In this document: in pieces, positions 7,854-36,468 of the stretch
How the letters are laid out: the number at the start of each line of letters is the position of its first letter
Position numbering within the stretch: the first letter of the stretch is position 1
NCBI GenBank assembly: GCA_023231475.1
Contig: JALJEE010001089.1
Span: forward strand, 1-39,400
Direction: 5' to 3'
DNA length: 39,400 nt
From: Seison nebaliae
Lineage: Eukaryota > Rotifera > Pararotatoria > Seisonacea > Seisonidae
Notes under the pieces: generated by a model
What the model saw: only the letters and a program-made list of their open reading frames with translations
What the model was told of the DNA's origin: nothing
The model's database searches: none
Program-made: the position numbers and the translations under genes

Positions 7854-10489
7854 TTAGTTAATTTTTGAAGAAGTAAGTTTGAGATTTGCATGATCCACCC
7901 TAACTATTTCTTTAACTGTTCTTTCGATTTCATTCTCTTCCACATTGAAGAAATCAAAAAATAAATTGAGCTTAAACTTCTGTATATGGAAATGATGAAA
8001 TGGATAAAGGAAACGGAAATTTCTAACGAAATTTTCTTTCGCTTCCTTCGTATTAATAAAGCAGAGACGTGTTTGCGCGATTGGTTGTTGGAGTGGATTG
8101 AACGATGGTAATGAATCGATTTCACTCTTACAAATCTTATATGTGACACCCATAGACTATAAGAAAAATTAAGAATGTTATAATGAAATATTTCAATTAG
8201 AAACTTTATTGGGAGTTACTTCGACTATTTCACAATTGTCAATACGATATTCTGTATTCAAATTGGACAGATGAAGCAAAAATAGATGTGTAAAATTCAA
8301 TGAAATGTTGTCATTCATTTCATTAGATTTCAGAGTAGCCGGTATTAAGAGAAGACGAATGTCGTCGCGTTCATAAATTGGAATGGAATCTTTCATTTTT
8401 AGATTAAGTTTCGTCATATCTAAATCATCGAAATTTACATTTTTCTGAGATTGAATGTGATGTGAAGAATTGAAGATTTCATCTTTTGAAAATTGAATTT
8501 CTGATTTATCACTTGATAAAATTTCTTTTATGTTATTTTTTGGTATAGGAAAAGTTTTCATCATATTTAATCCATTATTTATAATGTTTGTTGTTGTTGT
8601 TGCTGTTGTGGGATAGGAGGAAGTGGTGGCGATTAAACTGGAAATTGGTGAGTCAGTTCCTATTTTATCTGTCAATTGTTGTTTCATCCAAGACTCACTT
8701 AATTCGGACAATTCTGAAAAACAGTCTTTTGGTTTATCTAACTTTATATCAATTCTTTTTTTCATTACAGGAACTTGATGATTATCTTTCTCATTAATAT
8801 CGATCTCTTCATTTTTATTGTTACTGAACTGCAGAACGGGAACAGTTCTATCCATTTTGCAATTACTAAAAATATCGTCAATTATATTTTTAGTTTCTTT
8901 TTCAGTTGTAGATGATGTTGTAGAAGAGTGGAAGATATCACCATATTTGACTAATTGATGTGAGTTCTCATGGATTGGTTCATCGAAATCAACTAAAAAC
9001 AATTGATCAATATCAGCAGATCCATTACTAAGTTCGTTTTCCGAAATCTCAAGTTTTTTAGGAATTGGACTTACTGTTGTTTCCAATGATTGGCCAATAT
9101 TAGTGTGGGAGGAAGTTGTATCTTTATTTTCGTGTTTACCATCTTCGAAATCATTGAATAACAAAATATTATCAATTTGTGTTTCTTCAGATAATTCGTT
9201 TGATCCGCACATAACCTTATCATATTTCTCCAACGACATACAAATGTAATCGTTACAATCCAATAAACTTTCTAAAATTAGAAAAGATTTGTGAAAAAAT
9301 GCAAATGAATTATATCGAACTCATCAAATCTGAATCGGAGGTATCACAATCAGTTATCATTTTCTTCAATTCTTCATTTTTCCCTTTCAAATCGTCGTAG
9401 ACAATCTAAGAAGGATGATAGTTGAAGATCGTTAAATAACAAATGGTGAAACTTGTAAAGTTTCTTCGGAACTTTCCGATTCATTTGCGTAATTATCCAA
9501 CATCTCATTTAATATTCTTGCACTCAACTTCGTTTTCTCAATATCGGACAATTTTGTTGCTCGAACTTCCACTTTCGCGTCATCTTTTTTTAACATTTGT
9601 TTTATTAAGTTATTTGCCTTCTGCAAATCATTCTCATTCTTACTCTTCAAATATGATTTCAGTGTCTATGAAAAGAAAGTGTGAGAAATTGTTATTGTTC
9701 TCTTCTTAACAAACTTGAACATCGGGATTGTGATTGTCGAATATTGATGGAGATCTTGGTCTTGGTACAATTTTATTATTCTGAAAATAGGAAGAGAGTC
9801 GAAGAGAGAGATTGATAATTGGATAAAGAGTATTGACGTTAGAAACTTCGAGAATATGAGTTGGATCTGATTTTATAAATGAATAATTTTTCAGAGCGTT
9901 ATAAGCTTCACTGATTTTTGATTCGTGTGGAAGATAGATCGTCCATGAATATAATAATTCTATACATTTCGTTTGTACTTTTGCCGTTGTTCGATTTCCA
10001 AGAAACTGACAATTTCATAAAAAAGAGAAGATGACGAATGAAGGAACTTTTGGAGAAATCATTCGAATAATTTCATTAAGAAATTTGAATTTACCAATTT
10101 CCTGATGGAGAAGACAACCACATTCATTGACAGCCGCATCTAACACCTTGAGTATGAATAATCAAATATTCTTCTAACTATGTCATCTAACTGACAGAGC
10201 GAGTAGTGCTTCCCATTCCTCGTGCGATTGCATCTTCTTGACCAACAATGACAAACCAGATCGTATCGTTGTCAAATCAGAATTCATTTTCTTGCAAAAC
10301 GACGTCACTAATTGTGGATCATATGAAGTTTTCTGATTCTCATGAAAGATCTTACCTTCGACAATTGATGAGTTAAATGATTTTAATAAAATTAAAACTA
10401 AAATCAATATCGATATTCTGATTAGCAGACGACGTTATTTTCGGATTTTCACCCGTCAACGACGAAAGATTGTTGATGAATAACGGCAT
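7854..10489 (-). CDS. GGA: GGA-type clathrin adaptor (VHS-GAT-hinge-GAE), 9 exons
   Basis: Exons 10399-10489, 10192-10355, 10048-10146, 9847-10005, 9715-9780, 9453-9665, 9321-9405, 8205-9271 and 7854-8156 join in phase to 748 residues. GGAs sort cargo at the trans-Golgi, binding ARF-GTP, acidic-dileucine tails and clathrin. The VHS domain is about 31-171 (HEEWEALLAL, GKFKFLNEII, VQTKCIELLYSWT). The GAT domain is about 190-330 (NDLQKANNLIKQML, then LLDCNDYICMSLEKY). A Ser/Asn/Thr-rich hinge follows with acidic clathrin-box-like segments (NILLFNDFED, QLFLVDFDEP). The C-terminal gamma-ear (GAE) domain starts near 570 and ends with FNPLQQPIAQTRLCFIN and a divergent tail; a further small intron in the last exon is possible. 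Exon 1 has no homology support beyond phase. All eight donors are A|GTT. It diverges from PP4C. Confidence 0.9.
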
Positions 10490-11042
10490 TATCTTTTTGG
10501 AATCAATTTTGATTTTACTATGAGAAAGAAAATACTGAGAATGACGATTTAGATTACAGCAATTGCCACCACGTATGGAAACGATTAGCGAATAATAATA
10601 ATGAAAAATTAAAATAATGAAAAAGGAATTTATCGAAATTTTCTTTTTATTATTAGAAACATGAATTTTTAATATATAACCATAGAAGAATTTGAAGAAA
10701 AATTATTTCTCACAAATTCATTTTACGTTTTTGGCTTATCTTCTCCTTCTTCAATTCCAAACAAATTTTTGACAGGCAACTAATCTTACATAATAGAAGT
10801 AAAAAATATCTCAAACGTCTGTTAATTAACTTTTTATTTCAAAAAAAAAATACAGTAAAATTGTCTGTATTTTTTCTAATATCTTTCTTTCTTTTTAACT
10901 TTTTTCTTATAAAATTTCTTATAATTAAAAATGAGAATTGTAGGTGCACGTTGAATTTATAGCCAGAACAATTAAGAAAATACGTTTCCTTTTTAGATTC
11001 TCCTCCCAATCGTCCAACAGATCTGTGAATTGAACAATTTGA
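10490..11042. promoter_or_regulatory. Divergent upstream region of GGA and PP4C
   Basis: 553 bases separate the two start codons on opposite strands, so both promoters and 5' UTRs should be here. It is AT-rich with homopolymer A/T runs around 10840-10860. No TATA or other element can be assigned. A 100-codon minus-strand frame (10839-11141) overlaps the PP4C start antisense and is judged not to be a gene. Confidence 0.5.
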
Positions 11043-12438
11043 ATGGTGAGCGAAAATATGATTAATATTCCGGCAAAGAAACGCCGTAGAAATAGTGAGA
11101 ATCAACAACTGCAAGGACAACAGCGACAAGTGGTAGATCAAATGTTGACTAGTGAGAATGTAACATCTGAAATTGTATATTCGACGATAAAGATAACATT
11201 AAATGACATTATATTTGAGATTCAGAATGCACGAGATTGTGAAGATGTGAATGAAATAAATCGTGAACCGTATCCCGATTGCATTCTCGATCAACAGCAA
11301 CAACAACAATCAACAAGCTCGAAATCTCCTTCATCATCTTCTGTTTCATCGACATCGTCTCTAAATTGTACCTCCAAAACATCACCATTAATTGTCTCAC
11401 CTATACCTTTAATTGCTTCACCACTTGCTGTGGTTAGTGATGAAGAGAATGAAACTAGAGATTGTCATACGAATGATGATATTGATCGAATTATTGCAAC
11501 GTTGAAAAAATGTCAACTGATATCGGAACAATCGGTCAAATGGCTTTGTGTTTGCTCCAGAGATATTTTAGTTCGTGAAGGAAATATTCATTCGGTGGAT
11601 CTGCCAGTTAAAGTTTGAACATTTAGTTAATTGATCATGTTAATTCGATTGGAAAAAGGTGTGCGGTGATATTCACGGACAATTTTACGATTTAATCAAA
11701 TTATTCGAAGTGGGAGGACAAGTGGAGAACGGAGTTAAATATTTGTTCCTTGGTGATTTTGTAGATCGTGGCTGTTATTCTGTCGAAACATTTCTACTTC
11801 TCCTCGCATTCAAAGTCAAATATCCAGAACGAATTTTTCTCATTCGTGGTAATCACGAATCACGTCAAATTACTCAAGTTTATGGATTTTACGATGAATG
11901 TATGAAGAAGTATGGATCAGCGACTGTTTGGCGTTTCTGTACGGAAACATTCGACTATTTTTCTCTCGGTGCAGAAATCAATGGGAAGATTCTGTGTGTT
12001 CATGGTGGATTGTCACCCTCCATTTATACTTTGGATGATATCAGATGTATCGATAGAAAGATCGAAGTTCCACATGAAGGAGCAATGTGTGACTTATTAT
12101 GGTCGGATCCAAATGATGCTCATCCTAAATGGGATATTTCACCAAGAGGAGCTGGTTTTTTGTTTGGACGTGAAATTGTAGAATCTTTTCATCGACGAAA
12201 TGGAATTAATTTATTATGTCGAGCACATCAATTGATTATGGAAGGATATAAATGGCATTTCGATAAAATGTTATTGACGATTTGGTCCGCACCAAATTAT
12301 TGCTGCAGATGTGGAAATGAAGCAGCCATTCTAGAATTGAACAATGACGAGAATTATTCTTTCATTAAATTTCGCGAAGCAGAAAGTGAATTTCGATTTA
12401 ACAATCTGAGATATTTCGACAATGACTATTTCTTATAA
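11043..12438 (+). CDS. PPP4C: Protein phosphatase 4 catalytic subunit with long N-terminal extension
   Basis: Exons 11043-11612 and 11659-12438 join across a 46-nt intron (donor GTTTGA) inside the [11 protein letters not shown] motif, giving 449 residues. This is a PPP-family Ser/Thr phosphatase. Metal-site motifs are intact: GDIHG, GDFVDRG, RGNHE, the HGG loop and RAHQ. PP4 identity rests on [19 protein letters not shown] and the C-terminal DYFL, whose Leu is carboxymethylated in PP4/PP2A. Nuclear and cytosolic PP4 acts in DNA repair, snRNP maturation and centrosome work. Odd: PP4C normally begins about 50 residues before GDIHG; here about 140 extra residues precede that, with a KKRRR basic patch near the N-terminus, a Gln run and Ser/Thr-rich stretches. 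The frame is open throughout and no Met lies close before the usual start, so the extension seems real. Confidence 0.93.
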
Positions 12439-12639
12439 ATAAATCATTCATTTTTCTATTTGTTGAGGACTCCATAATTGACGAATATCGTCTTATGATG
12501 TCAAGAGCAGTAAAAAAAATTTTGAAAAAATTATCTTTATCTTTAATAATGATAGAATAAAGATTTATCTTTAAATTTTTATTTTATTATTGTTATTTTA
12601 CTAATGAAAATATTAAAATAGGTTTATAAATCGATCATG

Positions 12640-13248
12640 TTATTCTGGTAATGTTTGTCCTCTTCCTGCTCCTCCGCTCTGCAGGAAAATATTCCACATT
12701 AATTTTATCTATCGTCGATTACAAATGGACTAACGAATAGTGGTTGAGATGTTCCTGGACCAACATCAGCTTTCTTATCTTGAGTTTCACGTGAGTCTTG
12801 GTAATTACCTCCTCCTCCACCACGTTCGTTCATCGATGGAAGTTCTTTTCGACAATGATAATGAAAAAATAAGATAGAAAAGAAAAGAAACTCCTCTTTT
12901 CTTTCTGGTATGGTTTTGGGACAACATCGTCAGGAAGATGAAGAAGTTCTCGAATATAATTAATTCCATCATTTGTCAATGTCCAGTAGAAATGTCTCCA
13001 TGCGAATTGTTCTTTGACATATCCCTTCGATTTCATAGACTATGAAGGAGAATGATTAAAAATTATGATTAGAGGAAAGAAATTTTGAAAGAAAATAAAA
13101 CAGTTAATGCTTTGATGACGACTAGATTAGGAATTTCTTTCAATCCTTTTGCCGTATGATTTCCTTCATATTTCTTCTCAGCTATCAATACGCCGTTTAG
13201 AAACAGTTCTTGATAGATCTGCTTTCTTACTGATTTGTCGATCAACAT
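12640..13248 (-). CDS. RPS10: 40S ribosomal protein eS10 (4 exons)
   Basis: Exons 13102-13248, 12892-13039, 12735-12844 and 12640-12678 give 147 residues; introns are 62, 47 and 56 nt (donors GTTTTA, GTTTCT, GTTAGT). eS10 sits in the 40S beak near the mRNA entry. The winged-helix N-terminal domain is clear: [16 protein letters not shown], then [17 protein letters not shown] and [12 protein letters not shown]. The C-terminal tail is short (human protein 165 residues) and keeps a degenerate Gly/Arg end, [13 protein letters not shown], in place of GGFGRGRGQ. The start Met matches the family start exactly. Gene diverges from USP39 with 260 bases between start codons. Confidence 0.95.
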
Positions 13249-13508
13249 TATAAATCTGAGAATAAAAAAAGTATAATTTGTATTATAATGAAATTATTGA
13301 GATTTTGATATATGAAAAGATACAAATGAATTTAAGGGATATAAATAAGAGCGACATCTTCCACGGGAAACTGTTGTTGTTTAGCCAAACATTTGAATAT
13401 TATTCGAAATAAAAATTTGACATTTTTTATATCATATCGTCCAAAAAGGGATTATTTGAAAATTGAAAGATTTTTTATAGATGAAAACATCTCGTTTGGA
13501 ACACGAAA
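13249..13508. promoter_or_regulatory. Short divergent upstream region of eS10 and USP39
   Basis: Only 260 bases lie between the two start codons, so the genes probably share one bidirectional promoter region. No specific element is assigned. Confidence 0.5.
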
Positions 13509-15378
13509 ATGAAACGACAAGTTGTTCAGCATGTAAATGGTGATAAACGATTAAAACAAACTGAACAATCGAATTGTGGAAGAGAAGTAAATGATAGTGA
13601 TACATTAATAATTGAATCAGAACGTTTCGAAGTGAATGAAAAGAAGAATGATAGAACGATTGATGTGCTATCGAGCAGTGAAACGGATGAAAGAGGAAGA
13701 AATTGTCCATACCTCGATACGGTGGAAAGGAAAGTTTTGGATTTCGATTTTGAGAAGTTATGCAGCGTGACATTGTCAAATCAAAATGTTTATTGTTGTT
13801 TGGTTTGTGGAAGATATTTCCAAGGAAGAGGCATTCGTTCACCTGCTTATCAGCACAGTATTCAGATTTATCATTATGTTTATTTGAATTTAGAGACGTT
13901 GAAATTTTATTGTTTACCTGAAAATTATGAAATAATTGATTCAAGTCTCGATGATATTCAATATCAATTAAATCCAATATTTAACGACGAAACTATCCGA
14001 TATGTATCAACCATCGTTCACGATATTCGAGCACATGATGGAAAGTATTATTTACCTTCAGTTGTAGGTTTGAACAATATCAAATCGAATGATTACGCTA
14101 ATGTTGTTCTTCACGCTCTATGTCAAACAGTTCCATTACGTAATTATTTTTTGAAAGAAGAAAATTATCGTCAATTTATAACACCAAAATCATTGAATCA
14201 TAATTCAATAGTGGACCCTATCAAAGAGAATTTCATAAAGAAATCCTACAACATCAGTTCACTTCATTTATTACCAAAAAGATTAGGAGAATTAATGAGG
14301 AAAATGTGGAATCCCCGAAATTTTAGAACTCATGTCTCTCCACATGAAATGCTACAAGTCATTTCCCTTGTCAGTAACAAACAATTCCAAATCACAAAAC
14401 AAAACGATCCACAACAATTAATGACTTGGTTGTTGAATGCACTTCACGTTTCATTAGGCGGTTCAATAAATGGAAAGAAGTCCACAATTATCACCGAGAT
14501 GTTCCGAGGCAAAATTAAAATTTATTCCAAGAAAATTCCACCTGCATCACTTGTCAGTTATTTTCCATGTGTAACTTTGGATAATTTTTCCAAAATTTTC
14601 CTTTTTAGAATCAGAAGGATGTCGAAAAATATCACCATTTATCTGAATATCAAGGTACTTTTTATTCTCATTTCAAATTTATAATTTTTTTTAATCTCAA
14701 GAAACAATTTCCACCGTTCCATTTTTTTGTTTGACGCTCAATCTGCCATCTGGTCTTATGTATCGAAATGAATGGAAAGATGATATTATTCCACAAGTTC
14801 TACAATTTCACTAATAGTTTAATGAACTTCCTCTGTGTTAGATTCCTTTGTTCAATATACTAAAGAAATATGATGGTCAAACTGAAACGGAATTTAAGAC
14901 ACACGAAGAGAATTTTATTAAAAAATATGAAATCCTTCATTTACCCAAATATCTAATTCTGTATTATGAGGTTTAACTATTCAAAAATTTCTAATAATTT
15001 AATATTTTATCAGAGATTTACAAAGAACAATTTTTTCGTGGAGAAAAATCCAACAATCGTCAATTTTAAGATAAAGTTCATTTAATATTTTCTTTCAACA
15101 ACATCAATTGGACAATCATTTTAAGAGACGTCGATTTTCGAGAACTGCTTAATGATGAGAATTTAACAAAAACCAAAAATACTCGATATAACTTATTGGC
15201 AAATATCGTACATGACGGAGACTTGGAGAACGGAAGTTATCGAATCTATATCCATCATAAGTCGACGGACGAATGGTACGAGATTCAGGATCTTCATTTT
15301 CGAAAAGCTCTGCCTGAAATAATTACACTGAGTGAGTGTTACATACAGATATGGGAACAAATCAATGATAACAAATAG
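13509..15378 (+). CDS. USP39: USP39/Sad1-type spliceosomal pseud-ubiquitin protease (6 exons)
   Basis: Exons 13509-14552, 14609-14654, 14702-14796, 14842-14970, 15014-15075 and 15126-15378 give 542 residues, close to the human 565. The protein is a U4/U6.U5 tri-snRNP factor needed for spliceosome assembly. The zinc-finger UBP domain starts at NCPYLDT (Cys66) and includes DFDFEKLCS and CLVCGRYFQGRG. The USP-like domain starts near residue 187 with GLNNIKSNDYAN, where the catalytic Cys of real proteases is replaced by Asp. Near the end, GSYRIYIHH lacks the catalytic His. Both losses are normal for this family, so it should not cut ubiquitin. FTKNNFFVEKNPTIVNF and ITLSECYIQIW match closely. Intron donors are GTCAGT, GTACTT, GTTCTA, GTTTAA and GTTCAT. 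Confidence 0.96.
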
Positions 15379-16041
15379 TTTCTTGATATTTTTTAATTTA
15401 TTTTCAATAAAAATAAAAACATTTTGAAGAATAATTTTTACCTCCAATTCAATTGAAGAACAAAAAGAGTTCTATATAAAATCTAACGACAAGAAATAAT
15501 AATAATAATAATAATAATAATCGTCATCATAAAAACAAGTGGAAACGAAACGGATTTCATTAGAAAGTGTCGATTGACGTAAAGAATATACAAACATCTC
15601 ATCCGAAATGAGCGGAGATGAACGTCTACCTGTGCATATGTCCTTTTCTTCTTCTATTTCTTATCTAATGAATTTTTATGTCTGTGATTTGATGAGGAAC
15701 GTAAAAAATGTTTCAATTTGATAAGAATCTAATAAGAAAAAGGAAAAGAATCAATTAATTGGAATCGGCAAATTAATTGCTTTTACTATATTTTTTATCT
15801 TTTCTTTTGGATTAATCGTCTCATGTCTAAACTGTGTTCGAGAGGAATACGATAGAAAATTTGTTTTTAGGCGAGTTATAATAACAAAGTTAAATAATAT
15901 GTTGTATGAATTAACAGAAAACTATTACGGAACCATTTGAAAAGAAATGATCGTGCTACTTACTCGTGTTCGAGTTGGTTGATTTGGTGAAGATAGATAA
16001 GAAAGGAAATGTAAATGAACGATAAATAAAGTCACCGAGCG
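15379..16041. other. Convergent 3' flanks of USP39 and the zinc-finger gene
   Basis: About 660 bases between two converging genes. Both 3' UTRs should lie here; an AATAAA lies at 15405-15410 shortly after the USP39 stop. Apart from an AAT microsatellite nothing is recognised. Confidence 0.5.
15495..15521. repeat. (AAT)9 microsatellite
   Basis: Nine perfect AAT units in the intergenic region between USP39 and the zinc-finger gene. Confidence 0.95.
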
Positions 16042-19000: not shown

Positions 19001-20798
19001 ATATTACTAAAATTATTGTTCTTACTACTACTACTATTATTGTAAATATTCCTGTTGATGTTATTGTGGTTTTTGTTGAAATTATTTCCAATTTGTGTTT
19101 GTATTTGAGTATTATTAACTGGTAAGGGTTTCCTACAATGACTTTGAGGAAAATTAACTAATTTTAAATTATTTTGTTTGTTGCCATGGTTTATTGGAGA
19201 CATGTATTCATAAGAATCAGTTCTTCTACTTATCATATTCTGTCTCTTCAATTTCGATAAGTTTATTAATGAATCCTTTTCCATTGGAATTATTCTTGGA
19301 TTCTGATAATTAAGAAATTGATGATTTGAATATTCGCGATATTCATTATTTGTCTGATGTGCTGGTGGTGATTGTGATGATATTGATGAATTATTATATC
19401 GATCAGATGATCCGTTCGAATCTCTTCTTTCACCATCTTTATGATATCGTCGATGTGTTTGCATACGTTGTTCACTGAAAAATTTCCTGTCGCATCCTTC
19501 GTAAGTACACTTGACAACACGACCATCTTTCCCATGAACACTGATCATATGAGCTTCTCTCGCTTTATCGGTACAGAAACTCATGGGACCGTTATAAGTT
19601 CCATCAATGTTCTGCGTCGGCAAATTTCGTATATTCTTCTCGTCATTGAGAAGTTCTTGAAATTCCTTAAGAAATCGCGAGTTCTTCCGAAGTTCGTTAG
19701 GCATTCCTCTTAAATCTTTATCGTGTGCATTACCAGAAGAATATTTCACTGTGCACAATTTGCATACGATTCCTTTCGAGATACTTTTCAATAGATGTTG
19801 CTTCAAATTATACAGTGTAGCAAACGATGATTCACAACCATTGATTGGACACTAATATATAAATGATTAAATAAAGTCTGAAATTTTTATTAATCTATTA
19901 AAAATCAACCTTATATTGTTTGGTATGATTATGGTGACTATTCTGATGAGCAGTTAATTTTCCGCGATTCGAAAATGACCATTCACATCCCTTTTCTGGA
20001 CACTGGAAGTAGAAGACGAAGAGACGATGGAGGAAATTATGAAATGAATAAAGAATAACCTTGTGCACATTAACCTCCATATGTGTCGACATATGACCTT
20101 TGAGATCGTACTTCTTTGTAAAAGACATGTTACAAGCGACGCATATCAAATTATTGGACGTAACAATCTGATAGGAGTTTTTTTTAAATAAATATATAAA
20201 TATGAGGAAATTACTAAACATTTTTTTGATAATTATTATGGTTGTTATTGTTCTTCTTGTTGTTATTATTATTGTTCATATCATCTATATGATGTGGAAG
20301 GATATGGTTTGATCGAATCGTCGATTTATTGGAACTAAAAAAAATTGGCATGGAAGATGGTGGTTGATTGCGCACGTTCTCATTGGAATTTTGTTGCACA
20401 TACGATTCATATCGATTCCAGTCATTCTCATCACTTGTCGTTCCACAAATTTGTTGATGATGATCGTTCGTCGTATAAACGGATGTCGGATGATGATTTT
20501 GAAATGATCCATTGTTGTTTGGTCTTAATCGAGTTGGTGTTTCGACAAGCGTTCGCTGATTCAACAAATTCCCATTATGATTATCGTTTGACAATTGTAC
20601 ATTGCATCGATTTTCGGTATGATGAGAAAAAACATCGGCAGACGATGAATCATGAAAGTTGGAGAGAGGTGTCGAATTGAAATAGTTCGAAGGTTTTTCG
20701 AATATTAAATTATTCCGATACATTGATTCGCGGTTCAACGATGTTTGTCGTATGATATCGTCTGGTGTATATTTTCTTCCTTTATTCTCAATGCACAT
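16042..20798 (-). CDS. Large C2H2 zinc-finger protein (4 exons, 1529 aa)
   Basis: Exons 20220-20798, 20060-20167, 19910-20002 and 16042-19851 join in phase (introns 52, 57 and 58 nt; donors GTTTAG, GTTATT, GTTGAT). Two finger clusters are seen. The first (about 200-360) has CVACNMSFTKKYDLKGHMSTH, CPEKGCEWSFSNRGKLTAHQNSH, a degenerate CPINGCESSFATLYNL finger and, after a spacer, CTYEGCDRKFFSEQRMQTHRRYH. The second (about 886-1030) has five fingers in tandem, such as FICLTCGKTFNRKDHLVDH. The rest is low-complexity Asn/Ser/Thr/Asp-rich sequence, with Asn runs just before the first cluster. It is probably a nuclear DNA-binding regulator. I cannot assign an orthologue; the first cluster's CxxxxC spacing recalls ZXD- or MTF-type fingers. 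An upstream exon is possible, since TTTATTAG|AAAGAT lies just before the Met codon. Confidence 0.88.
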
Positions 20799-23700: not shown

Positions 23701-23984
23701 TTGACATGAAAGAAATTAATAGTAATTGTTTATATAATCATCTTGTTGGCAAATGCACTCCAATCTCAACCCACTACAACTTTCCAATGAAATTGTGAGT
23801 CATTCATTATTCCACTTTAATCGTTAACAAAAGAGAGAGAAAGAGAGTAAGTTACATAACTGGAGAATTTTTCTGATAAATAAAGTTTAATTCATTCGTT
23901 GAAGAATTTATTATATTTTCACCATAACACTCTGTGCATAATACATGCACCAACTGATGAATAGAGAGGACAATATAATTATAT
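20799..23984. other. Long gene-poor stretch upstream of the zinc-finger gene
   Basis: About 3.2 kb with no gene I can assemble, exceptional in this dense window. It is next to the 5' end of a putative transcription factor, so regulatory DNA or untranslated 5' exons are the likely content. A 78-codon plus-strand frame (21076-21312), Asn/Lys-rich with HTSNKNNNN at its start, and a 64-codon minus-strand frame (21549-21743) have no recognisable features. A short TA run lies at 22782-22795. No tRNA-like or rRNA-like sequence is seen. Confidence 0.5.
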
Positions 23985-25275: not shown

Positions 25276-26590
25276 TTCGCCATAGGTGACATACCATCAA
25301 TTGAACATAGTTATTCTTTAACTTCTCTCTCTTTTCCAGTTCCTTTTTTTTCCGGATAGATGGCGAAAGAAACAGTAAATTAAATGTGTGGATCAGTACG
25401 TTTAACATCGACTCAGCCAGTTGTTGTGCTACGAAAGAAAATGAAGTATTAAGATGGTTTGATAAAATCTCTCCGAAAGAAGATCTGATAGTGATAGGTG
25501 TGATTTTCTTTTTTTCTGTTGTTCCTTTACATTGTTCCATATAGGTCTACAAGAAGTTGCTACTCTCTCGTTTAGTACTTTTGTTGGTTTAGGTTTAGAA
25601 AAGGGAAGACAATGGTCGAAAAAGATCCATCGAATTCTCAACAAACATCTCTCAAGTTCAATCATTCATCATCTTATTGTTTTTTATCTCGTATGTTTTC
25701 TGTCAATCTTTTTTCGGCAATTGACAGATATTGATAACTCTTCAAATTCGTCGTATGAGTTAGTTGTTGCTCAACAACTTGTTGGCATATCTATTATAAT
25801 TTTCCAAAAATGTCACACTGAAACTAGTGGGAAGTTCATATCAAATTTTGATATAAAAAATGTTCAAATTATTTCAACTCCATTCGGTTTGGTGAACATG
25901 ATAGGCAATAAGGGTAACGTCGGAGTGCGAATGGAAATTAATGATTCGGTTTTTGGCTTTTTAACCATGCATTTACCATCAGGAATGGGTTATCGTAATG
26001 ATAGAACAAAAAAGTTCCATGAATCACTTAATGAGTTTTTTCGACTGACGAACAGTAGTTGGGAGGAAATGGATTGTTTATTCGCGATTGGTGATATGAA
26101 TTATCGATTAGCTGCACCTAAAATTTCACGAAGTACATTGCAATCGATTGCAGAAGAATTTGTAAGAATGGACAATTTCGAAAATAATTTAAGGCGAATA
26201 ACCAGATTATGCGTGGATAACGACGAATTGACAACTGAACGAAAAAATGATGATTTACTAAAATTATTCCAGGAAAAATTCATGATTTATTCTGGCGTTA
26301 ATTTGACTGCACCGAAACTCTTCCTCCCAACATACAAATATGAACGACGTCATTTATCGCAATTTGATTGTAAGAAAATGAGATTTCCTGCATGGTGTGA
26401 TCGAATTCTGTTTCATTCGAAACATCGTCTTCTCCAATTGACTGAATATGATTCCATACAACATATAACAATTTCAGATCATAAACCCGTTTTCGCCAAA
26501 TTCACATTTTCTCTCATCAACGATCAATCACATGAGAATGATGGAGAAGAATTTTGTACAGTCGATCTCCTAGAAATGAAATGTTCATAG
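25177..26590 (+). CDS. Inositol polyphosphate 5-phosphatase (catalytic domain)
   Basis: Exons 25360-25497, 25545-25655 and 25728-26590 are well supported; 25177-25285 is a possible first exon with an in-phase Met, giving about 406 residues. The enzyme removes the 5-phosphate of phosphoinositides or soluble inositol phosphates. IPPc motifs in order: VWISTFNID, GLQEV, MIGNKGNVGVRM, FLTMHLPSG, AIGDMNYRL (catalytic Asp/Asn), PTYKY, FPAWCDRILF and SDHKPV. The protein is little more than the catalytic domain; no RhoGAP, SH2, Sac1 or CAAX motif is seen (it ends LLEMKCS), so the subfamily stays open among OCRL/INPP5B, INPP5E/J and others. The 72-nt intron at 25656-25727 has no stop and keeps the frame; read through, it would add a false hydrophobic segment. 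Catalytic domain 0.9; first exon about 0.35. Confidence 0.85.
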
Positions 26591-26769
26591 AAAATCATAG
26601 ATTTAGATTGTAAATAAAAGAAAAATTTTAATTTTAACTTTATTCATTATCACAATTACATATTGTTCAAATGATGAGCGTCCGATTTCTTTCATTTTTG
26701 AGTCAGATTTATAATTTGAGTCGAATTATTCAATCATAGAATCGTCAACAAAAAGTGTAATTATTGGGA

Positions 26770-27474: not shown

Positions 27475-27594
27475 AAAAGAGGAGATTTGCTTTCCATTCG
27501 TTTTCTTTCGTAAATATTAAGATTAGTTTCTAATAAAATCTTACAAAATATTTGATGAAATCTTATAAAACATACGTTTAGAAATACGAATTCT

Positions 27595-30500
27595 TTAATT
27601 TTTCTTATCATTCTTCATTCGATTGAGATAACTTTTCATCGGATTATCTTTTGGACTATTCGAACAATTTTTTTGTTGAGAATAGGCAGTGAATTGTCTC
27701 CAACGCTTTATTGTTAATTTGGCCGCATTCGTTTTAGCCAAACGACCGTTTCTTCCAATTCCAACGAACATTATTGTAGAACGATGAGCACCACAAAATC
27801 GAGCGAATGCTGAATGATTAACATGTGCAAATACTTTTATTTTATTATGAGATGCCATTAATGGTCGACTGAAACGAACACAATCAGGTAAACTTTCGAT
27901 CAATTCTCTCACTGGAAACTTCGGAACATTCTCGCAAAAATTTTCTAAAAAAATAAATGAAGATAATTTAATTAAGGAAAATATGTAACGTATTTGACTT
28001 TTCATCATTCGATAATAAATCTTCCACACTAATTCTGCATTCCTTCCACTGTCAATAAAAATCGCACCGGCTACACTCTCAAAAATATCACCCAAACATT
28101 TCGGTACTTCCAGATATTCTTTCTCTTCGATTAAGTTCGTTGAAATTTCATTGTTCTGTTCGAATTCCCTTAATTTTTTCATATCCATCGAATTATCATC
28201 GAAGTTATTTGAATTAATTATATCATTTTCATCTTGATCAACTATTCCCGATGAGAAATCCAATAGATCGTCAATATCGAGACAAAGATCGTCATCATAT
28301 TTATGACGAAAACGTTCAATGAATGCATCGATAGATTTAATGATCGACAAGTTCTGATGAATAAGATATCGATGAAAGTCATATTTACAACTAATAAAAG
28401 CGAAGATTGTGTTGTTGACAAGAGCGGAACGAAGATCTGTAATTTCACCAGGATTTCGAAATTTGTGATCATGGAATATGTGTTCGGTAATAACGAAATC
28501 TAGAACAGCATCGCCTAGTAATTCGAGTCGTTGATAAGAGTCAGTGGCAGAAGAAAGAAAGCTGGCACTTGAATGAGTGAATGCTTCAATCAATAATGAT
28601 TTATTATTAAATCGATAAGATAATCGATTTTCAAATAGATGAATATTCTTCAATTGTTCTTCAAATAAACGAGAAGCGCTGAGAATGTCTGGTATGAATT
28701 GTTCCGTTGACGAATATAATTCAATGGGAGATTCGTTCAATTTCACATATATATTCTTTTGAGAATCATCTTCTATTTGTATTTCATTAAAATCGAAATT
28801 TAATCCAAACCATTTCATCACTTTCAACGTTTTCTTCATCCCTAATTCTATTAATGATGCCCCAATAATTGCTTCCACACAATCAGCAATTGACTTATCT
28901 GACAAATAATGTTCATTGATCATATCCATATCTCTTGTTTCGTTCACTTTCATCTCATCTTCAAATCTCACTTTCCTTTTCTGTCCATCTTCTTTTTTTA
29001 AACTTGTCGGTTGGACGGCAGACTTGGTGTTGGAATAGTTCGATAAGAAAGTTTTCATTTGATTCGAAGAGAAAGTGGAAGTATCATCATCGATCAATTT
29101 CCTTTTTTTTTCTGTGAACATAGGCGGACACCAATTGACATAAGGATGAAATTCAGTAGATTGCATATAATTAGGAATATGTCTCCTTTTCCCTAAATAT
29201 GCGAGAGTTTGATTTGAAATCAATTTCGAGCGAAGCAATGAAAGAACTCCTTCATTCTCTCTAGGAAATTTCAAGAAGAGATAAATAGCTGAGGAGAATT
29301 TAAGGAAAGAATCACCTAATAATTCAACTCGTTCCAAATCGAAAGCATCACCAGCTGACCTTAATGTAAGTGCTTGAAGTAATTGACATGTAGTCAGAGT
29401 ACCATCAATGATATCATCTAAAGACTCATACCACTTATCATTCAATTCGTCATTATTTAGATCAATGAAACTTTTTTGTTTTAAATCAAAATCTTTCACA
29501 AGTAAATGTTTCATCGACAAACCCATCGATTTCTTTTCCAATCTGCTTTGTCCAATCGCATAATATTTTTCTATGGATTCCATAAAACGGAAATTTTTCA
29601 TTTCTTCGCCGATTCGATTTGGATCATAGACCAATTGAAGATTTATCTTTTCGTTGAAATGATGATCGGAAGATGAATGAAGAATTATCGATATTTCGTG
29701 AAACTTTATTTCATTCATTTCATTCGAATTTATTATTTCGTAATTTTCATTCGGATTTTTTCGGAATTCTTCTAAATTTTCATTAACTAATTTATAATTC
29801 ATTTTGAAGACGACTCTTCTCTTCTTTGCATTCTCATAAGCATCGATTGAACGACAGTGTCTCTTGAATGTGGATTGGAGATTATTCATTCGGTTTATTT
29901 GCAGCTCATTATTCTTTTCATCCATCAAATCATCACCATCCGTATATTCCATATCATCATCAAAATGATAATTTGATCCGAATTCCGAAACGGTAATCTC
30001 CTTCCAATTCTTCTCTAATATTTTCTCTTGTTCATTCATGTCAATGAGGAAAGAATATGACAAATTATCAAAATGATCATTAGATTGATCGATTAAATTC
30101 AATTTGTCAAATTCATCTTCCATTTGGAACTGTTTCTTCTTCGTAATTGCTTGGACAGAATTCGAAGGTTTAGTTGATGATTTTTTTGAATTACATCTAG
30201 AAAGTTCTACTGGAATTTGTTTCGGAAGTGTCATTTTATTCTGATAGTTCTGATTTAATGGTTCTGATAGATTTCGTGTTGATTGGGAACCAGATAAACT
30301 TTGATCTTTCTGATAAACTTGATGGAGATCATTCAATTCCATTTCATCGAGAACGAAAGCTTTATTTAATTGCGAATTTTTCCAATGTCCCTCGATCGAA
30401 CTAACTTCGTTTTCTTCCTCCGTCTTCTTTCTTTCACATTCGAACCAGATTGCATTACTCCAAACGGAAATTGATTTTACATCTTCATCGTTCTCTAATT

Positions 30501-33500: not shown

Positions 33501-34962
33501 TGGCAATTAATTTAGAAATCTTTGAACCCTTTCTAAAATGGAATTCATTGTCGATAATATCGGATGAATAGTAGAGATATCTGATGGTATTATCGATATA
33601 GGATTGAATGAACGAAAGTTTAGTGATAGTCCATCGTAACAGATTATGTTCGTCATCCAATAGACGACTACCGAACAATAGATTTAATTTCTCTAATGGT
33701 GACATGATGGAGCGAATGCCTCGAAGGAGACACCATACTCCTAAATTGTTGAGGATATGTAACGCTTCCATCAACGAACATTTACATATATGAGCAACTT
33801 TTAAATTGATTGAATCAGAAATATCATTTTCCTCATTTTCCTCATTTAGTAGATGATCATTTTGACAGAAATCAGTCAATTCCTTTAAAACTTCTTTCGA
33901 TTCGTTTTCAGTTGACTGATTAATTAGTTCAGCAGTTTTCCATTCGTTCGTCTTCTCCAAAAACTCAATTGCGTTGATTAATTCATTCTTTGTATTCTTT
34001 ATGAGATATAAGCAGGTGTCAGGCAAATCACGTCCACTCAAACTTTTACATTGAACGAATGTCATGTCAAGCTTGACGTCCGTGCCATTCATCCCGTTCG
34101 CTGTAAGTAAGAATGGCATCAAACGACATTTCCATAAATTCTCCAAACATTTCAACAATAAACTGAGATCCATATAAGAGATATTATTTGGAGTAACTTC
34201 TTTCATGTTGTTGTGCAGAAAGTTTTTCTTTTGAATTTTCCATATAAATTTCTCAAAATTTTCGTGAAAAGTTGAAAGGTGAAGAAGAAAATTGCCCATA
34301 AATAAACAACGATGAATTTTAGTAGATCGAACGTCGGTTGAGATAGATTCATAATATTCATCAACGAATATATTCTCGATATTATTGAGAATTATTAAAG
34401 AGTATAACTCGGCACTCTCCAAATTAATTAAGTTTCCTAATAATTCGGTGAATAAAATGGAAGAAAGGAAAATTACTGGAAATTTCTTGAGAATCTTCTT
34501 CCAATCATCCAATTTCCAAAAGAGAAGATAATGTAATTGAATTAATGGATAATCGATATATGTCATACTGTTGTCGTCTCGAATCAATTCATAAGTTGTC
34601 TGAGAATGTAAAATTTGTTCATAATTCTTCTTTTCCATGAGAATCTCTTCAAAGTTCGGTGACAATCCAAAAGCAGCGGGAAATGCTAAAGACGAAGAAT
34701 AATCAATAGCGATCTCTTTCGTTAATTGATGAGGATGACAGATGATAAGAACGGTTTTCGACGGATTTGTTTGAATGAAATGTCGAATTAGTTGAATTGA
34801 AATAAATTTTCGTTCAATATCGGTCTTATGAGGAATAATAATATTATCTCTTTTCGCCGCATCAATCACTTGATCAACCACCAAATGTTTCACTAATCCA
34901 TTTTCACCATTAATAGCTGAGGCGAAATCCTCAGAATTCTGATAAATTTGGGAGATTGACAT
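27595..34962 (-). CDS. DCR1: Dicer, Dicer-1-like with inactive helicase
   Basis: A 2455-codon frame broken only by a 45-nt intron (27945-27989), leaving about 2440 residues. Dicer cuts double-stranded RNA and microRNA precursors. The N-terminal helicase is degenerate: the Walker A site reads PHKTDIERK and the DECH box VDEYYE, so ATP hydrolysis is unlikely; insect Dicer-1 is similar. Helicase C remnants lie near 505-640. The dimerisation domain is about 760-860 (LLPSDQFTRLSP), PAZ about 1060-1215 (MNLLIPRYLS), then the long connector. RNase IIIa has ERVELLGDSF near 1880 and DKSIADCVEAIIGA near 2020; RNase IIIb has RLELLGDAVLDF near 2145 and GDIFESVAGAIF near 2290. The dsRBD follows (VPKFPVREL, NGRLAKTNAAK). 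Acidic catalytic residues are present in both RNase domains. At 2440 residues it exceeds fly Dicer-1; extra length is Asn/Glu-rich insertion before RNase IIIa. The upstream gene is IP3 3-kinase, 242 bases away. Confidence 0.93.
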   Translation of the reverse strand: MSISQIYQNSEDFASAINGENGLVKHLVVDQVIDAAKRDNIIIPHKTDIERKFISIQLIRHFIQTNPSKTVLIICHPHQLTKEIAIDYSSSLAFPAAFGLSPNFEEILMEKKNYEQILHSQTTYELIRDDNSMTYIDYPLIQLHYLLFWKLDDWKKILKKFPVIFLSSILFTELLGNLINLESAELYSLIILNNIENIFVDEYYESISTDVRSTKIHRCLFMGNFLLHLSTFHENFEKFIWKIQKKNFLHNNMKEVTPNNISYMDLSLLLKCLENLWKCRLMPFLLTANGMNGTDVKLDMTFVQCKSLSGRDLPDTCLYLIKNTKNELINAIEFLEKTNEWKTAELINQSTENESKEVLKELTDFCQNDHLLNEENEENDISDSINLKVAHICKCSLMEALHILNNLGVWCLLRGIRSIMSPLEKLNLLFGSRLLDDEHNLLRWTITKLSFIQSYIDNTIRYLYYSSDIIDNEFHFRKGSKISKLIANFLITSKVLNLIHELGNVKKGEQLLIFIQTRLSAQLLSDLIQYLTKDRRFSSIISFKCNFVFNQIKSIKANNKYPTVSASLPIPLNQEMMEDEKIIGTFEDNLKKFHKTTKLQLNISKKSAKKFIEKREFILQQFKKKQLNILICAGLNTNEMDYLFTDDHHLSLQHIYLMDTPQTFHQFHQIFSLYQQPSKSKTLKIFVNEISGNDLRTKCVQLTNWHTICQLLHHWNGKKINEDQYVSIPFDQINFKKENFGNYSRRFEIFQKFFDDSSNSYELLNYYCSLLPSDQFTRLSPTIKTYRSMEYQYRFLQLPINSKFHKFFIMRLPQDLVVPNDYLIQFVLFYLNEHDQLNMDEIGWNRSLPSTKYQIYLKNIRKLLTKELVEELEEKIKNKHLLTTNSDNYMLQTYFAIQPSTTNNNNDSNIFRKNVPKVFQVNDDLSMKLNEISTIMNCTKNEIFPQKFFIYQINVRSEKSILTKYQQRMESFLYNIFHATSNEDIRVITDLLSNLFRSYSRKERSSSLGIISLERIKLPFPKFAIFTRNGEEFIDLSLLNNKEFYQFNLFEIKKILYFHSYLFNNILKFGENVSNVQYDIRCSQSFSLVIPLKMNEIDWDQINSIWNNRHLSIFDIEMNRSRNELNLEQFSNSVITPTYRNREEPEYFFVSGIDPFLKISSSFPSKGKLFSSYQDYFEKKYCCQLQFHSKENLLIVETLSSRMNLLIPRYLSTTIKRGQLMKKRKKYLNDIPKVFALSHFRPSNNGRLSLLSLIMYIMSLLMKFEEEDVSSTKEIVVHIIYNKLWRYIIHSMYINHEEIIDEVTKEIDRLFSCRIESLLMERGLNENDLIELEENIPIVKCVIELLDKQLLSLTPSNNHHSQQIHFVPELVAVHPLHGEIWRSTLEFSSIFHRITSLLLARELKYELNLFIYSNESPSHNIQNKDNLYFYWDQHREDEWIGEEDYNLESLLNFYKNKSDNSLLNEENIRLNYSKNFNSNEFNSNGLDELENDEDVKSISVWSNAIWFECERKKTEEENEVSSIEGHWKNSQLNKAFVLDEMELNDLHQVYQKDQSLSGSQSTRNLSEPLNQNYQNKMTLPKQIPVELSRCNSKKSSTKPSNSVQAITKKKQFQMEDEFDKLNLIDQSNDHFDNLSYSFLIDMNEQEKILEKNWKEITVSEFGSNYHFDDDMEYTDGDDLMDEKNNELQINRMNNLQSTFKRHCRSIDAYENAKKRRVVFKMNYKLVNENLEEFRKNPNENYEIINSNEMNEIKFHEISIILHSSSDHHFNEKINLQLVYDPNRIGEEMKNFRFMESIEKYYAIGQSRLEKKSMGLSMKHLLVKDFDLKQKSFIDLNNDELNDKWYESLDDIIDGTLTTCQLLQALTLRSAGDAFDLERVELLGDSFLKFSSAIYLFLKFPRENEGVLSLLRSKLISNQTLAYLGKRRHIPNYMQSTEFHPYVNWCPPMFTEKKRKLIDDDTSTFSSNQMKTFLSNYSNTKSAVQPTSLKKEDGQKRKVRFEDEMKVNETRDMDMINEHYLSDKSIADCVEAIIGASLIELGMKKTLKVMKWFGLNFDFNEIQIEDDSQKNIYVKLNESPIELYSSTEQFIPDILSASRLFEEQLKNIHLFENRLSYRFNNKSLLIEAFTHSSASFLSSATDSYQRLELLGDAVLDFVITEHIFHDHKFRNPGEITDLRSALVNNTIFAFISCKYDFHRYLIHQNLSIIKSIDAFIERFRHKYDDDLCLDIDDLLDFSSGIVDQDENDIINSNNFDDNSMDMKKLREFEQNNEISTNLIEEKEYLEVPKCLGDIFESVAGAIFIDSGRNAELVWKIYYRMMKSQIRYIFSLIKLSSFIFLENFCENVPKFPVRELIESLPDCVRFSRPLMASHNKIKVFAHVNHSAFARFCGAHRSTIMFVGIGRNGRLAKTNAAKLTIKRWRQFTAYSQQKNCSNSPKDNPMKSYLNRMKNDKKN

Positions 34963-35204
34963 CTTGAAAAATATTCAAATAAATATTTTTGGACTAAACT
35001 TCAAATTTGAAAATCTTCAATATGTTCTATACTTCAAAATGGTTTGTTTAAAAAAAGAGAAAAATTTATAATTTAATTGAAAGTTCTCTCTCAAATTAAA
35101 CTCTAAAATATTTACATAATGCTTTTAACTTTATGAAAATAGGAAAATAATCAAATTTATACGAATTGTGATGATCGATAAATATTAGGACGAATACTGT
35201 TAAT

Positions 35205-36468
35205 TTACATATGCAACTTCTGACATACTTCTATTAAGTTATTTAATCCGATGAGAAATCCATCTTCTTCTTCCATAGGAATCCAATATTTCAAATGTGT
35301 CACTGGTTTCCTGGTGACAACCGTCTTCGCAAAATCAATTAGATTGACATTGCAACGATTGTCATCATGATAGATCAATAACGACGTTGCTATTAACTGG
35401 AGAAAGGGGGGAAGAGAATAAAAAGTAAATTCTTTCAAAACTTCTTTAAGCAAACTTGATGATTTTTGAAGAACATTGAATTGCACAGATCACTTCTTAA
35501 CTTTTCTAAATTTTCTTGGAGATTGAACTGAAAGGAAATGAAGCACAAATATAAAAAAAGAAAATAAGATAATGGGATAAGAGAAGAAGAACTATAAGTT
35601 TTGGGGAATCATTGAGAAATTTCTGGAAAAAATATTCAACATTAGCTATTTCTGCCGATATTAAATCGTGTTTCGGGATTTTATTTCCCTTGATCTGCAT
35701 TGCTTCAATCCTGTAACCATGATGGAATGTCGTTGATAAGCGATCTCTCCAACACAAATATCGATATTTAGTCATTTTCTTATTTTCAACTTCTTCCTTC
35801 TTTAAAATGAAATTTGAATCTTTTTTTTTTTTGAGACTTACATGAAAATTAGTTCCAATGAAAAGAAGATGAACCATGAATGAATGAATAATCAGAAATT
35901 AATTCTTTCAATTTCGGTTTTATATCAGTGGATGGCAGTTTTGACATCGAATCATTCGAATCAACGCTATCGAACGAATTGAGACCCTCACAGATTTTTT
36001 TCAGACTTAATCGATTATCCGCTTTGAGAGAGGAATGATAATTTTGATATTTGTTAAACAGATCTTCTCGTTCTTTTGACTCCCAAACCTCCTTCAATGA
36101 GAAAGTTCTCGTACCCATTTTAATATCAGTAACGGAATGATCAATTCCTTTCAATCGTTGAAGTAGATTCTCCATTTCAAACCATTTTCCTAAAACTTAA
36201 ACGAAGATGGAGAAATGAAAAATTGGAACCTGAGTCATCTGCCACTATCCCATAAGTCTTTGGAATGTAATCATGAATCACGTCATCAGAGTAAAGAGTT
36301 TTAAGTGATTTGTAAATGGAAAATTCGTTTTCGGAAAATTTTTTTAAAATTCGATCCTCATTTTTTTGTCGAAAGTTATCTAATCAAAATTAGAAGAAAG
36401 CAATTAAACGATAGGTAACTTGAATGGCCACCAACTGGTTTCCACATTCCTATTCTCTCGTTTTTCAT
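35205..36468 (-). CDS. Inositol-trisphosphate 3-kinase (6 exons)
   Basis: Exons 36420-36468, 36230-36379, 35875-36189, 35593-35819, 35456-35527 and 35205-35396 give 334 residues; introns are 40, 40, 55, 65 and 59 nt, all with GTT donors. The enzyme phosphorylates Ins(1,4,5)P3 to InsP4, ending the calcium signal. Family motifs: WKPVGGHS near the start, the DxKxG motif in VTDIKMGTRTF (about 86-96), LCWRDRLSTTFHHGYRIE (the region that in IP3K binds inositol phosphate), TSLLIYHD, the metal-binding Asp292 in NLIDFAKT, and EDGFLIGLNNLI. The RYLCWRD segment argues for IP3 3-kinase rather than IP6K or IPMK. It is the short form, without the long N-terminal region of vertebrate ITPKs; upstream exons cannot be excluded. 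Confidence 0.92.

What the first reader, a model, noticed from the sequence alone, without database searches (positions are those of the whole stretch)
7854..36468. 5' splice sites read A|GTT instead of the usual AG|GTRAGT
I placed 31 introns in nine genes from frame, and in eight of these genes also from family similarity (GGA 8, eS10 3, PP4C 1, USP39 5, zinc finger 3, Dicer 1, IP3 3-kinase 5, 5-phosphatase 2, secreted kinase 3). In 28 the +3 base is T (GTTTCT, GTTCCT, GTTTTA and similar); the exceptions are GTCAGT, GTACTT and GTGTGA. None is GTAAGT or GTGAGT. The -1 base is A in 18 and G in only 7. Animals almost always have A or G at +3, matching the 5' end of U1 snRNA. A lineage-wide shift like this would imply a changed U1 (or U6) snRNA or a reduced role for U1. 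Basis: donors are read directly; the interpretation is inference.
Basis: partly seen in the sequence, partly recalled or inferred. Interest (0 to 1): 0.78.

Follow-up and report, generated by a model that had tools for sequence, protein, structure and literature searches.

The report
Rotifer splice sites with matching U1
In the tiny marine rotifer relative Seison nebaliae, introns mostly begin GTT instead of GTA or GTG, and most of the U1 RNA genes found in its genome, the RNAs that recognise intron starts, carry the matching base change at a position that is otherwise almost never altered.

Summary
The window is a Seison nebaliae contig. Of 32 anchored introns, 28 have T at +3 and none is GTRAGT. 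An HMM trained without donor preference gives 127 of 143 with +3 T, also when training starts from CAG|GTAAGT; 123 of these lie in 16 other contigs. T follows GT in 41% of all GTs and 57.5% of those inside introns.

Four U1 genes were found. Three begin AUACUAAC instead of AUACUUAC: U1 position 6, opposite donor +3, is A. One also has U at position 9, opposite donor -1, now mostly A. The fourth is canonical. Positions 6 and 9 are the only ones that vary among the first 13 U1 bases. The three changed genes carry the 3' element AATTAAACT seen at Seison U2, U4 and U5 genes. U6, U5 loop 1 and U1C are ordinary.

Best explanation: U1 and its 5' splice sites co-evolved genome-wide. My paper searches showed no counterpart. 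Expression is untested.

The parts
11613..11658 (+). PP4C intron 1, donor TTAAA|GTTTGA
   Evidence: matches deposited protein P0001
13040..13101 (-). eS10 intron 1, donor AACT|GTTTTA
   Evidence: gap-free against solved eS10 chains at this junction
12845..12891 (-). eS10 intron 2, donor AGGA|GTTTCT
   Evidence: frame and GT-AG; family alignment loose here
12679..12734 (-). eS10 intron 3, donor ATTC|GTTAGT
   Evidence: frame and GT-AG; family alignment loose here
14553..14608 (+). USP39 intron 1, exception donor CTT|GTCAGT
   Evidence: gap-free alignment to human USP39 6qw6_U
14655..14701 (+). USP39 intron 2, exception donor AAG|GTACTT
14797..14841 (+). USP39 intron 3, donor CAA|GTTCTA
14971..15013 (+). 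USP39 intron 4, donor GAG|GTTTAA
   Evidence: gap-free alignment to human USP39 3jcr_V
15076..15125 (+). USP39 intron 5, donor AAA|GTTCAT
   Evidence: gap-free alignment to human USP39 3jcr_V
27945..27989 (-). Dicer intron (45 nt, in frame), donor TAC|GTTACA
   Evidence: HMM; removal gives a gap-free alignment to Dicer 3c4b_A at the junction
   Evidence: HMM
19852..19909 (-). zinc-finger gene intron, donor AAG|GTTGAT
   Evidence: HMM
25498..25592 (+). 5-phosphatase gene intron, exception donor TAG|GTGTGA
   Evidence: HMM
4552..6237 (-). SF1/BBP gene, single long open frame; branch-point-binding splicing factor with SF1-HH, KH and zinc knuckle domains
   Evidence: Pfam

Best explanation
Seison nebaliae has a re-tuned U1:5' splice site helix. 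Most of the U1 snRNA genes found carry A instead of U at position 6 of the arm that recognises the 5' splice site, so the arm (AUACUAACCUG or AUACUAACUUG) pairs with T, not A or G, at intron position +3. One gene (L007) also has U at position 9 and so pairs with A at -1. Donors across the genome have moved with it, to roughly AA|GTTWNW. Pairing is concentrated at -2 to +3. Positions +4 to +6 pair poorly with U1 and U6, while the A-rich exon end fits U5 loop 1 and a LUC7L3-type LUC7 protein, so later proofreading probably leans on U5.
Shown: the donor shift, the U1 gene sequences, intact U6, U5 loop 1, U2 branch-pairing region and U1C, and the shared snRNA 3' element. Inferred: expression of the A6 U1s, their direct selection of these donors, and the U5/LUC7L3 part.
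For: Donors: +3 T in 28 of 32 anchored introns and 14 of 16 set residue by residue in five genes; GTRAGT in 0 of 32 and 0 of 143; 127 of 143 HMM introns. EM training from a CAG|GTAAGT start still ends at +3 T 0.86, from a flat start 0.88. Three deposited S. nebaliae proteins are reproduced exactly by GT-AG splicing: P0001 across its 1 intron, P0121 with 5 introns, all 305 aa, P0241 with 8 introns, all 286 aa; all 14 donors are GTT.
U1: four Rfam U1 genes over cut-off; L004 and L006 AUACUAACCUG, L007 AUACUAACUUG, L005 AUACUUACCUG. Only columns 6 and 9 vary in the first 13 bases. Asking which base at each U1 position 3-11 best fits 143 donors, the largest gain over canonical is U6 to A (4.20 to 5.00 mean Watson-Crick pairs); C9 to U gains 0.25.
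Gene quality: AATTAAACT lies 9 nt past the 3' end of all three A6 genes and is also found past U2_L031, both U4 and U5 (7 of 9 snRNA genes examined); a random 70-nt stretch holds it with probability 0.002. L007 and U5 share an upstream element near -72. The three A6 copies keep the U1A loop AUUGCAC; L005 does not.
Machinery: U6 ACAGAGA, U5 loop 1 and U2 branch region and U1C are ordinary; the U1-70K N-terminal domain has a match.
Against: No RNA data: expression of any U1 copy is not shown. Two of the three A6 copies keep C9 and do not pair with the commonest -1 base, A. In-register duplex energies with the A6/C9 arm beat the canonical arm in 64 of 143 donors, tie in 65 and are worse in 14; the A6/U9 arm beats canonical in 113, ties in 3 and is worse in 27. 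G11 to U, seen in no copy, would gain 0.38 pairs, more than the observed C9 to U, so U1 does not track every donor position. A canonical-end U1 (L005) persists and shares a 14-nt upstream element with U2, so it may be used. The G at +5 that U1 C4 would want is only about 24% and +4 to +6 do not fit U1, so the helix is short. No clear shared upstream element was found for L004 and L006. Against the 57.5% background inside introns, the 16 residue-fixed donors alone give only p 0.01. The HMM makes boundary errors (LUC7 intron 5, U1C, p30) and missed eS10. The search for U1 scored only the best candidates (41 of 293), so further copies cannot be excluded.
Confidence: 0.82

Rival explanations
1. 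The donors drifted to GTT because U1 pairing matters little in this species (short introns, selection by U5, U6 or proteins). The U1 changes are relaxed decay or variant copies, and canonical U1 L005 does the essential work.
For: +4 to +6 do not fit U1 or U6; a canonical-end copy remains and has a U2-like upstream element; the U1 genes are only 62-67% identical to each other.
Against: Drift does not explain T at 88% against a background of 41% (57.5% inside introns). The substitutions fall on exactly the two U1 positions opposite the two shifted donor positions and are the complementary bases, while the other 11 of the first 13 U1 bases are invariant in all four genes. The A6 genes keep the U1A loop and the exact 3' element, which L005 lacks or has in 8 of 9 letters.
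Confidence: 0.1
2. Two parallel U1 snRNPs split the introns: A6 U1s (best L007, AACUU) read AA|GTT donors and canonical L005 reads a minority of AG|GTA donors.
For: +3 A donors have -1 G in 8 of 13, against 24 of 127 for +3 T donors (Fisher p 0.002). All three anchored +3 A donors (USP39, RGS, TPR) have -1 G. L005 keeps a 5' end complementary to AG|GTA and a U2-like upstream element.
Against: Only 13 +3 A introns, some possibly HMM errors. A strong -1 G could simply compensate for a +3 mismatch with a C9-bearing A6 U1. L005 lacks the U1A loop and has 8 of 9 letters of the 3' element.
Confidence: 0.25
3. Artefact: wrong gene models, a shifted intron frame or low-complexity bias produce apparent GTT donors.
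For: The genome is AT-rich and introns are short (median about 50 nt), so boundaries can be ambiguous.
Against: Introns set residue by residue (14 of 16 +3 T) and three deposited proteins (14 of 14 GTT) agree. Training from a canonical start converges on GTT. The changed U1 was found only after the donor pattern had been reported.
Confidence: 0.02
4. Minor-spliceosome (U12-type) introns.
For: Non-GTRAGT donors in general raise the possibility.
Against: No U12 snRNA match at E 1 (42 of 3167 candidates scored). Donors lack the U12 consensus (recalled: ATATCCTT/GTATCCTT).
Confidence: 0.01

Closest known systems
Canonical animal U1 snRNA:5' splice site pairing (U1 5' end AUACUUACCUG with CAG|GTRAGT; recalled)
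   Same: Same RNA family, same register, GT at +1/+2 read by C8 and A7, AG acceptors, ordinary U1C, U5 loop 1, U6 and U2 branch region.
   Different: Position 6 is A in 3 of 4 genes found (and 9 is U in one); donors are AA|GTT with weak +4 to +6.
Fritillaria borealis non-canonical introns (PMC13326754, abstract start and passages seen)
   Same: Another animal lineage with massively altered donors.
   Different: There the GT/AG rule itself is escaped and the paper states that the U1 5' end is strictly preserved, in both U1 versions; it proposes altered m6A and duplicated U2AF. Here GT-AG stays and U1 itself is changed.
Saccharomycotina +4 A/U switches (PMC10581693, passages seen)
   Same: Switch at one donor position across a lineage.
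   Different: There U1 ACUUACC was invariant in all species with a U1 prediction and U6 ACAGA in all, and the switch tracks METTL16 and SNRNP27K. Here both protein families have matches in the genome and U1 is changed.
Human variant U1 snRNAs (PMC5159530 and PMC13172311, search listing and abstract start only)
   Same: Divergent U1 gene copies in one genome.
   Different: Accessory paralogues beside a canonical U1 (recalled); here the changed form is the majority of genes found and the donor consensus follows it.
Giardia and nucleomorph U1 (PMC3510501, PMC6461891, passages seen)
   Same: Highly divergent spliceosomes in reduced genomes.
   Different: They keep the ACUUAC recognition motif.

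Membership tests
U1 snRNA (RF00003) | Covariance-model score above the family cut-off over the full length | tested here: met
   112.9, 112.4, 108.0 and 97.4 bits against 69.5, model 1-166, for the four genes
U1 snRNA (RF00003) | 5'-terminal ACUUAC recognition motif (near-universal, not part of the family cut-off) | tested here: not met
   ACUAAC in L004, L006, L007; ACUUAC only in L005. The first three are filed as U1 on score, structure and gene context, with this feature changed.
U1 snRNA (RF00003) | U1A-binding loop AUUGCAC in stem-loop II (motif recalled) | tested here: met
   Present in L004, L006, L007; AGAGCAC, so not met, in L005
U1 snRNA (RF00003) | Sm site AAUUUNU-like after stem III | tested here: met
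   AATTTAT (L004), AATTTAT (L006), AATTTGT (L007), AATTTCT (L005)
U1 snRNA (RF00003) | Expressed, capped, in a U1 snRNP | not testable with these tools
   No RNA data here; the 3' element AATTAAACT shared with U2, U4 and U5 is indirect support
U2-type GT-AG introns | GT start and AG end | tested here: met
   32 of 32 anchored introns, though the models were chosen with GT-AG in mind; the HMM nearly required it
U2-type GT-AG introns | Animal donor consensus G|GTRAGT (recalled) | tested here: not met
   0 of 32 and 0 of 143 GTRAGT; +3 A or G in 3 of 32 and 15 of 143
U12-type introns | U12 snRNA in the genome | tested here: not met
   No match at E 1, best candidates only
U5-loop-1-favoured 5' splice site class (AG//GUNNN, PMC11732430, passages seen) | Strong exon-side, weak U6-side pairing potential | tested here: inconclusive
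   Exon end A-rich (-3 A .56, -2 A .61, -1 A .53 in +3 T introns) and U5 loop canonical, but -1 is A, not G; the U5/U6 correlation was not computed

The most novel reading that the evidence does not exclude
Seison runs its major spliceosome with two U1 specificities: A6 U1s (three genes, one also U9) read the bulk AA|GTT introns and a canonical U1 reads a residual AG|GTA class. This would be a natural, genome-wide re-coding of the U1:5' splice site code in an animal, with an intermediate two-U1 state still visible that shows how such an 'unchangeable' code can be changed.
Probability: 0.3. Interest if true: 0.93.

Novelty: new variant of a known kind. Interest (0 to 1): 0.86.

Why it matters
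The recognition arm of U1 is one of the most conserved stretches of RNA. [quoted passage not shown] Seison would show that the arm can change when donors across the genome change with it, perhaps through a duplicated-gene intermediate. It offers a natural compensatory-mutation test of what U1 positions 6 and 9 and the -2 to +3 pairs contribute. It also warns that gene finders trained on GTRAGT may mis-model such genomes.

Tried and rejected
U6 change: rejected, ACAGAGA and flanks canonical. Loss of METTL16 or SNRNP27K as cause of the weak +4: not supported, PF05971 and PF08648 both have matches; the PF05971 hit was not proven to be METTL16. U1C change: none seen once one acceptor was corrected; the first HMM model of U1C was wrong. 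Minor spliceosome: no U12 at E 1. Branch-point motif: no enrichment of CTAAC, CTAAT, TAAC or similar in 131 introns; the top 5-mer was TGAAC, 12 introns against 2.8 expected, not followed up. A shared upstream element for all U1 genes: not found; only L007 with U5 and L005 with U2 match well. In one search I read the U5 locus and one U2 locus (L032) in the wrong place or strand; U5 was redone, L032 was not used. When the change arose: unknown, other rotifers are not in the collections I could search. A U1 model of my own was built but could not be searched in this genome.

Anchored set, what was dropped: the HMM gave 50 multi-exon genes; I printed 14 and sent 7 of the 50 plus LUC7 to Pfam. Two of these (539 and 333 aa) had no family; their introns stay in the HMM set but not in the 32. 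The Na/K-ATPase-beta and TPR matches are weak, so their five introns are softer anchors. Introns outside the Pfam stretches were left out of the 32.

Literature: ten searches showed no report of Seison donors or of an A6 U1. Some lists were capped: 20 of 21, 25 of 29, 15 of 46, 8 of 43 and 20 of 30 papers shown; one search found none. PMC8351084 (Seison genome; term search of the main text only) has 0 occurrences of snRNA and donor, 1 of splic, 2 of intron; PMC12256650 has 0 of splic, intron, snRNA and snRNP; PMC7310846 has 0 of intron and snRNA. Only open-licence PMC papers were searchable. PMC10599564 was seen as outline and abstract.
Full report
Source. The PP4C frame of the window is 100% identical over 98% of the query to SNEBB_000627 of Seison nebaliae, whose contig is given as 39,400 bases. 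The genome held has 36.03 Mb in 846 contigs. Seison is an epizoic relative of rotifers (PMC8351084; abstract start and term passages seen).

Donors, homology. Five genes, PP4C, eS10, USP39, U1C and LUC7, were spliced residue by residue: 16 introns, +3 T in 14, C in 1, A in 1. Checks: PP4C against P0001; USP39 gap-free across five junctions; U1C gap-free across two; LUC7 identical to a deposited protein; eS10 gap-free at its first junction only. Adding one Dicer intron (gap-free) and 15 introns inside Pfam domain matches (RNase P p30 six, RGS two, TPR one, Na/K-ATPase beta four, UAA transporter two) gives 32: +3 T 28, A 3, C 1; -1 A 16, G 6, T 6, C 4; +4 never G; no GTRAGT. Three deposited Seison proteins are reproduced exactly: PP4C across its intron, LUC7 over 305 residues and p30 over 286 residues. 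For p30 the deposited protein uses the seven HMM donors, moves one acceptor by nine bases and adds one intron. These three hold 14 introns, 14 of 14 GTT. How the deposited proteins were predicted is not known to me.

Donors, unsupervised. I wrote a two-strand HMM gene model and ran it on 239.4 kb: the window plus one 10-kb stretch from each of 20 contigs. With GT..AG fixed and no context learned, 121 introns have +3 T at 0.68. With learning, a flat start ends at 168 introns and +3 T 0.88, and a start biased to CAG|GTAAGT ends at 166 introns and 0.86. The 143 introns on which both agree have T 127, A 13, G 2, C 1. Around the 127: -3 A .56, -2 A .61, -1 A .53/T .23/G .19; +4 T .37/A .35/C .23; +5 A .35/T .26/G .24; +6 T .47/A .43. 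T follows GT in 41% of all GTs, 36% of coding GTs and 57.5% of GTs inside introns; against the last and strictest, 127 of 143 still gives p 2e-16 and 28 of 32 gives 3e-4. The model makes errors: it misplaced LUC7 intron 5, broke U1C, gave no spliced eS10 gene and missed one p30 intron.

U1. The Rfam U1 model finds four genes over the cut-off: L004 (C208:8280-8439 -), L005 (C208:6576-6739 +), L006 (C647:4426-4585 -) and L007 (C762:47440-47598 -) (41 of 293 first-look candidates scored). Their 5' ends are AUACUAACCUG (L004, L006), AUACUAACUUG (L007) and AUACUUACCUG (L005). In the alignment of the four, columns 1-5, 7, 8 and 10-13 are invariant and only 6 and 9 vary, although the whole genes are only 62-67% identical. 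Position 6 faces donor +3 and position 9 faces -1 (established register, recalled; position 5 opposite +4 is stated in PMC10581693). A at 6 pairs with T at +3; U at 9 pairs with A at -1. When each U1 position 3-11 is varied in turn against the 143 donors, U6 to A gives the largest gain over canonical (0.80 pairs), then G11 to U (0.38, seen in no copy), C9 to U (0.25) and C4 to U (0.11). The -3 A preference is therefore not explained by U1.

Are the changed U1 genes real genes? The word AATTAAACT lies 9 bases past the 3' end of all three A6 genes, 19 past U2_L031 and 12 past both U4 genes and U5. The canonical-end L005 has 8 of 9 letters of it at 14 bases and the divergent second U2 copy L033 has no match better than 6 of 9 there. 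A random 70-base stretch contains the word with probability about 0.002. L007 and U5 share ACAGTTCRCACTTTCT near -72, and L005 and U2 share ATTATCACACTTTT about -95, so both U1 kinds may be transcribed. The three A6 copies keep the U1A loop AUUGCAC; L005 has AGAGCAC. A supporting sign at genome scale: ATACTTACCTG occurs 3 times on both strands of the genome, one being L005 itself, against 34 for the word read backwards.

The rest of the machine. U6 has ACAGAGA; the U5 loop GCCUUUUAC and the U2 GUAGUA are canonical; U12 is not found. U1C begins [24 protein letters not shown] after correction of one acceptor and aligns without a gap to human U1C over residues 1-57. The U1-70K N-terminal domain has a match. 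One LUC7 gene is found (three exon matches on C540). Of 346 relatives the best 120 are listed; those with a numbered LUC7 name say LUC7-like 3, a few say only Luc7-like and many have no name. A review (PMC11732430, passages seen) says that knocking down LUC7L3 moves choice away from sites with strong U5 loop 1 pairing. That fits Seison donors, A-rich on the exon side and weak on the U6 side, but it is only a consistency.

Two classes? +3 A donors have -1 G in 8 of 13, +3 T donors in 24 of 127 (Fisher p 0.002), and the three anchored +3 A donors all have -1 G. This is what a residual canonical U1 would favour. It is equally what compensation for a +3 mismatch with a C9-bearing A6 U1 would give.

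Known or new. PMC10581693 (passages) asked whether compensatory U1 changes explain +4 switches and found ACUUACC invariant in every species where U1 was predicted (227 of 230 Saccharomycotina and 9 of 10 outgroups). PMC13326754 (passages) reports the U1 5' end strictly preserved in Fritillaria; its abstract says 95% of introns escape GT/AG. Giardia and nucleomorph U1 keep ACUUAC (passages). None of the papers shown by my ten searches (several lists capped) had a title or abstract start about a natural U1 arm change with matching donors. Subscription papers and preprints outside PMC were not searchable, so this is not proof of absence.

Verdict. Observation confirmed and genome-wide; the predicted change in U1 found at the predicted base. 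The causal link and expression await RNA data.

Noticed in passing
L004, L006 (5' end of U1): The U6 to A change makes the U1 5' end AUACUAACC, which contains UACUAAC, the classic branch-point sequence that SF1 and U2 GUAGUA recognise (recalled; UACUAAC as branch motif also in an abstract listed). Seison introns show no enrichment of CTAAC or CTAAT. Coincidence or a U1-U2/SF1 contact is open.
   Followed up: no
L033 (C796:78598-78799): A second, divergent U2 copy (78.7 bits against 139.1) with several broken stem pairs and no AATTAAACT 3' element; possibly a decaying copy or a variant U2.
   Followed up: partly
L004, L006, L007, L031, L034, L041, L042: An snRNA 3' element AATTAAACT shared by U1, U2, U4 and U5 genes of this species, useful for finding further snRNA genes.
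   Followed up: partly
C540:21460-23048: Only one LUC7 gene, of LUC7L3 type by its nearest named relatives, was found; a LUC7L/LUC7L2 relative may be lost.
   Followed up: partly
window 4552-6237: The SF1/BBP gene itself lies in this window as one long open frame.
   Followed up: no
window 27595-34974: A Dicer-like frame of 2459 aa (45-nt in-frame intron included) with platform, two RNase III domains, dsRBD and sub-cut-off PAZ and dimerisation matches, but no helicase family at E 0.001 in Pfam.
   Followed up: no
introns of the HMM set: TGAAC is over-represented inside introns (12 of 131 against 2.8 expected), meaning unknown.
   Followed up: no
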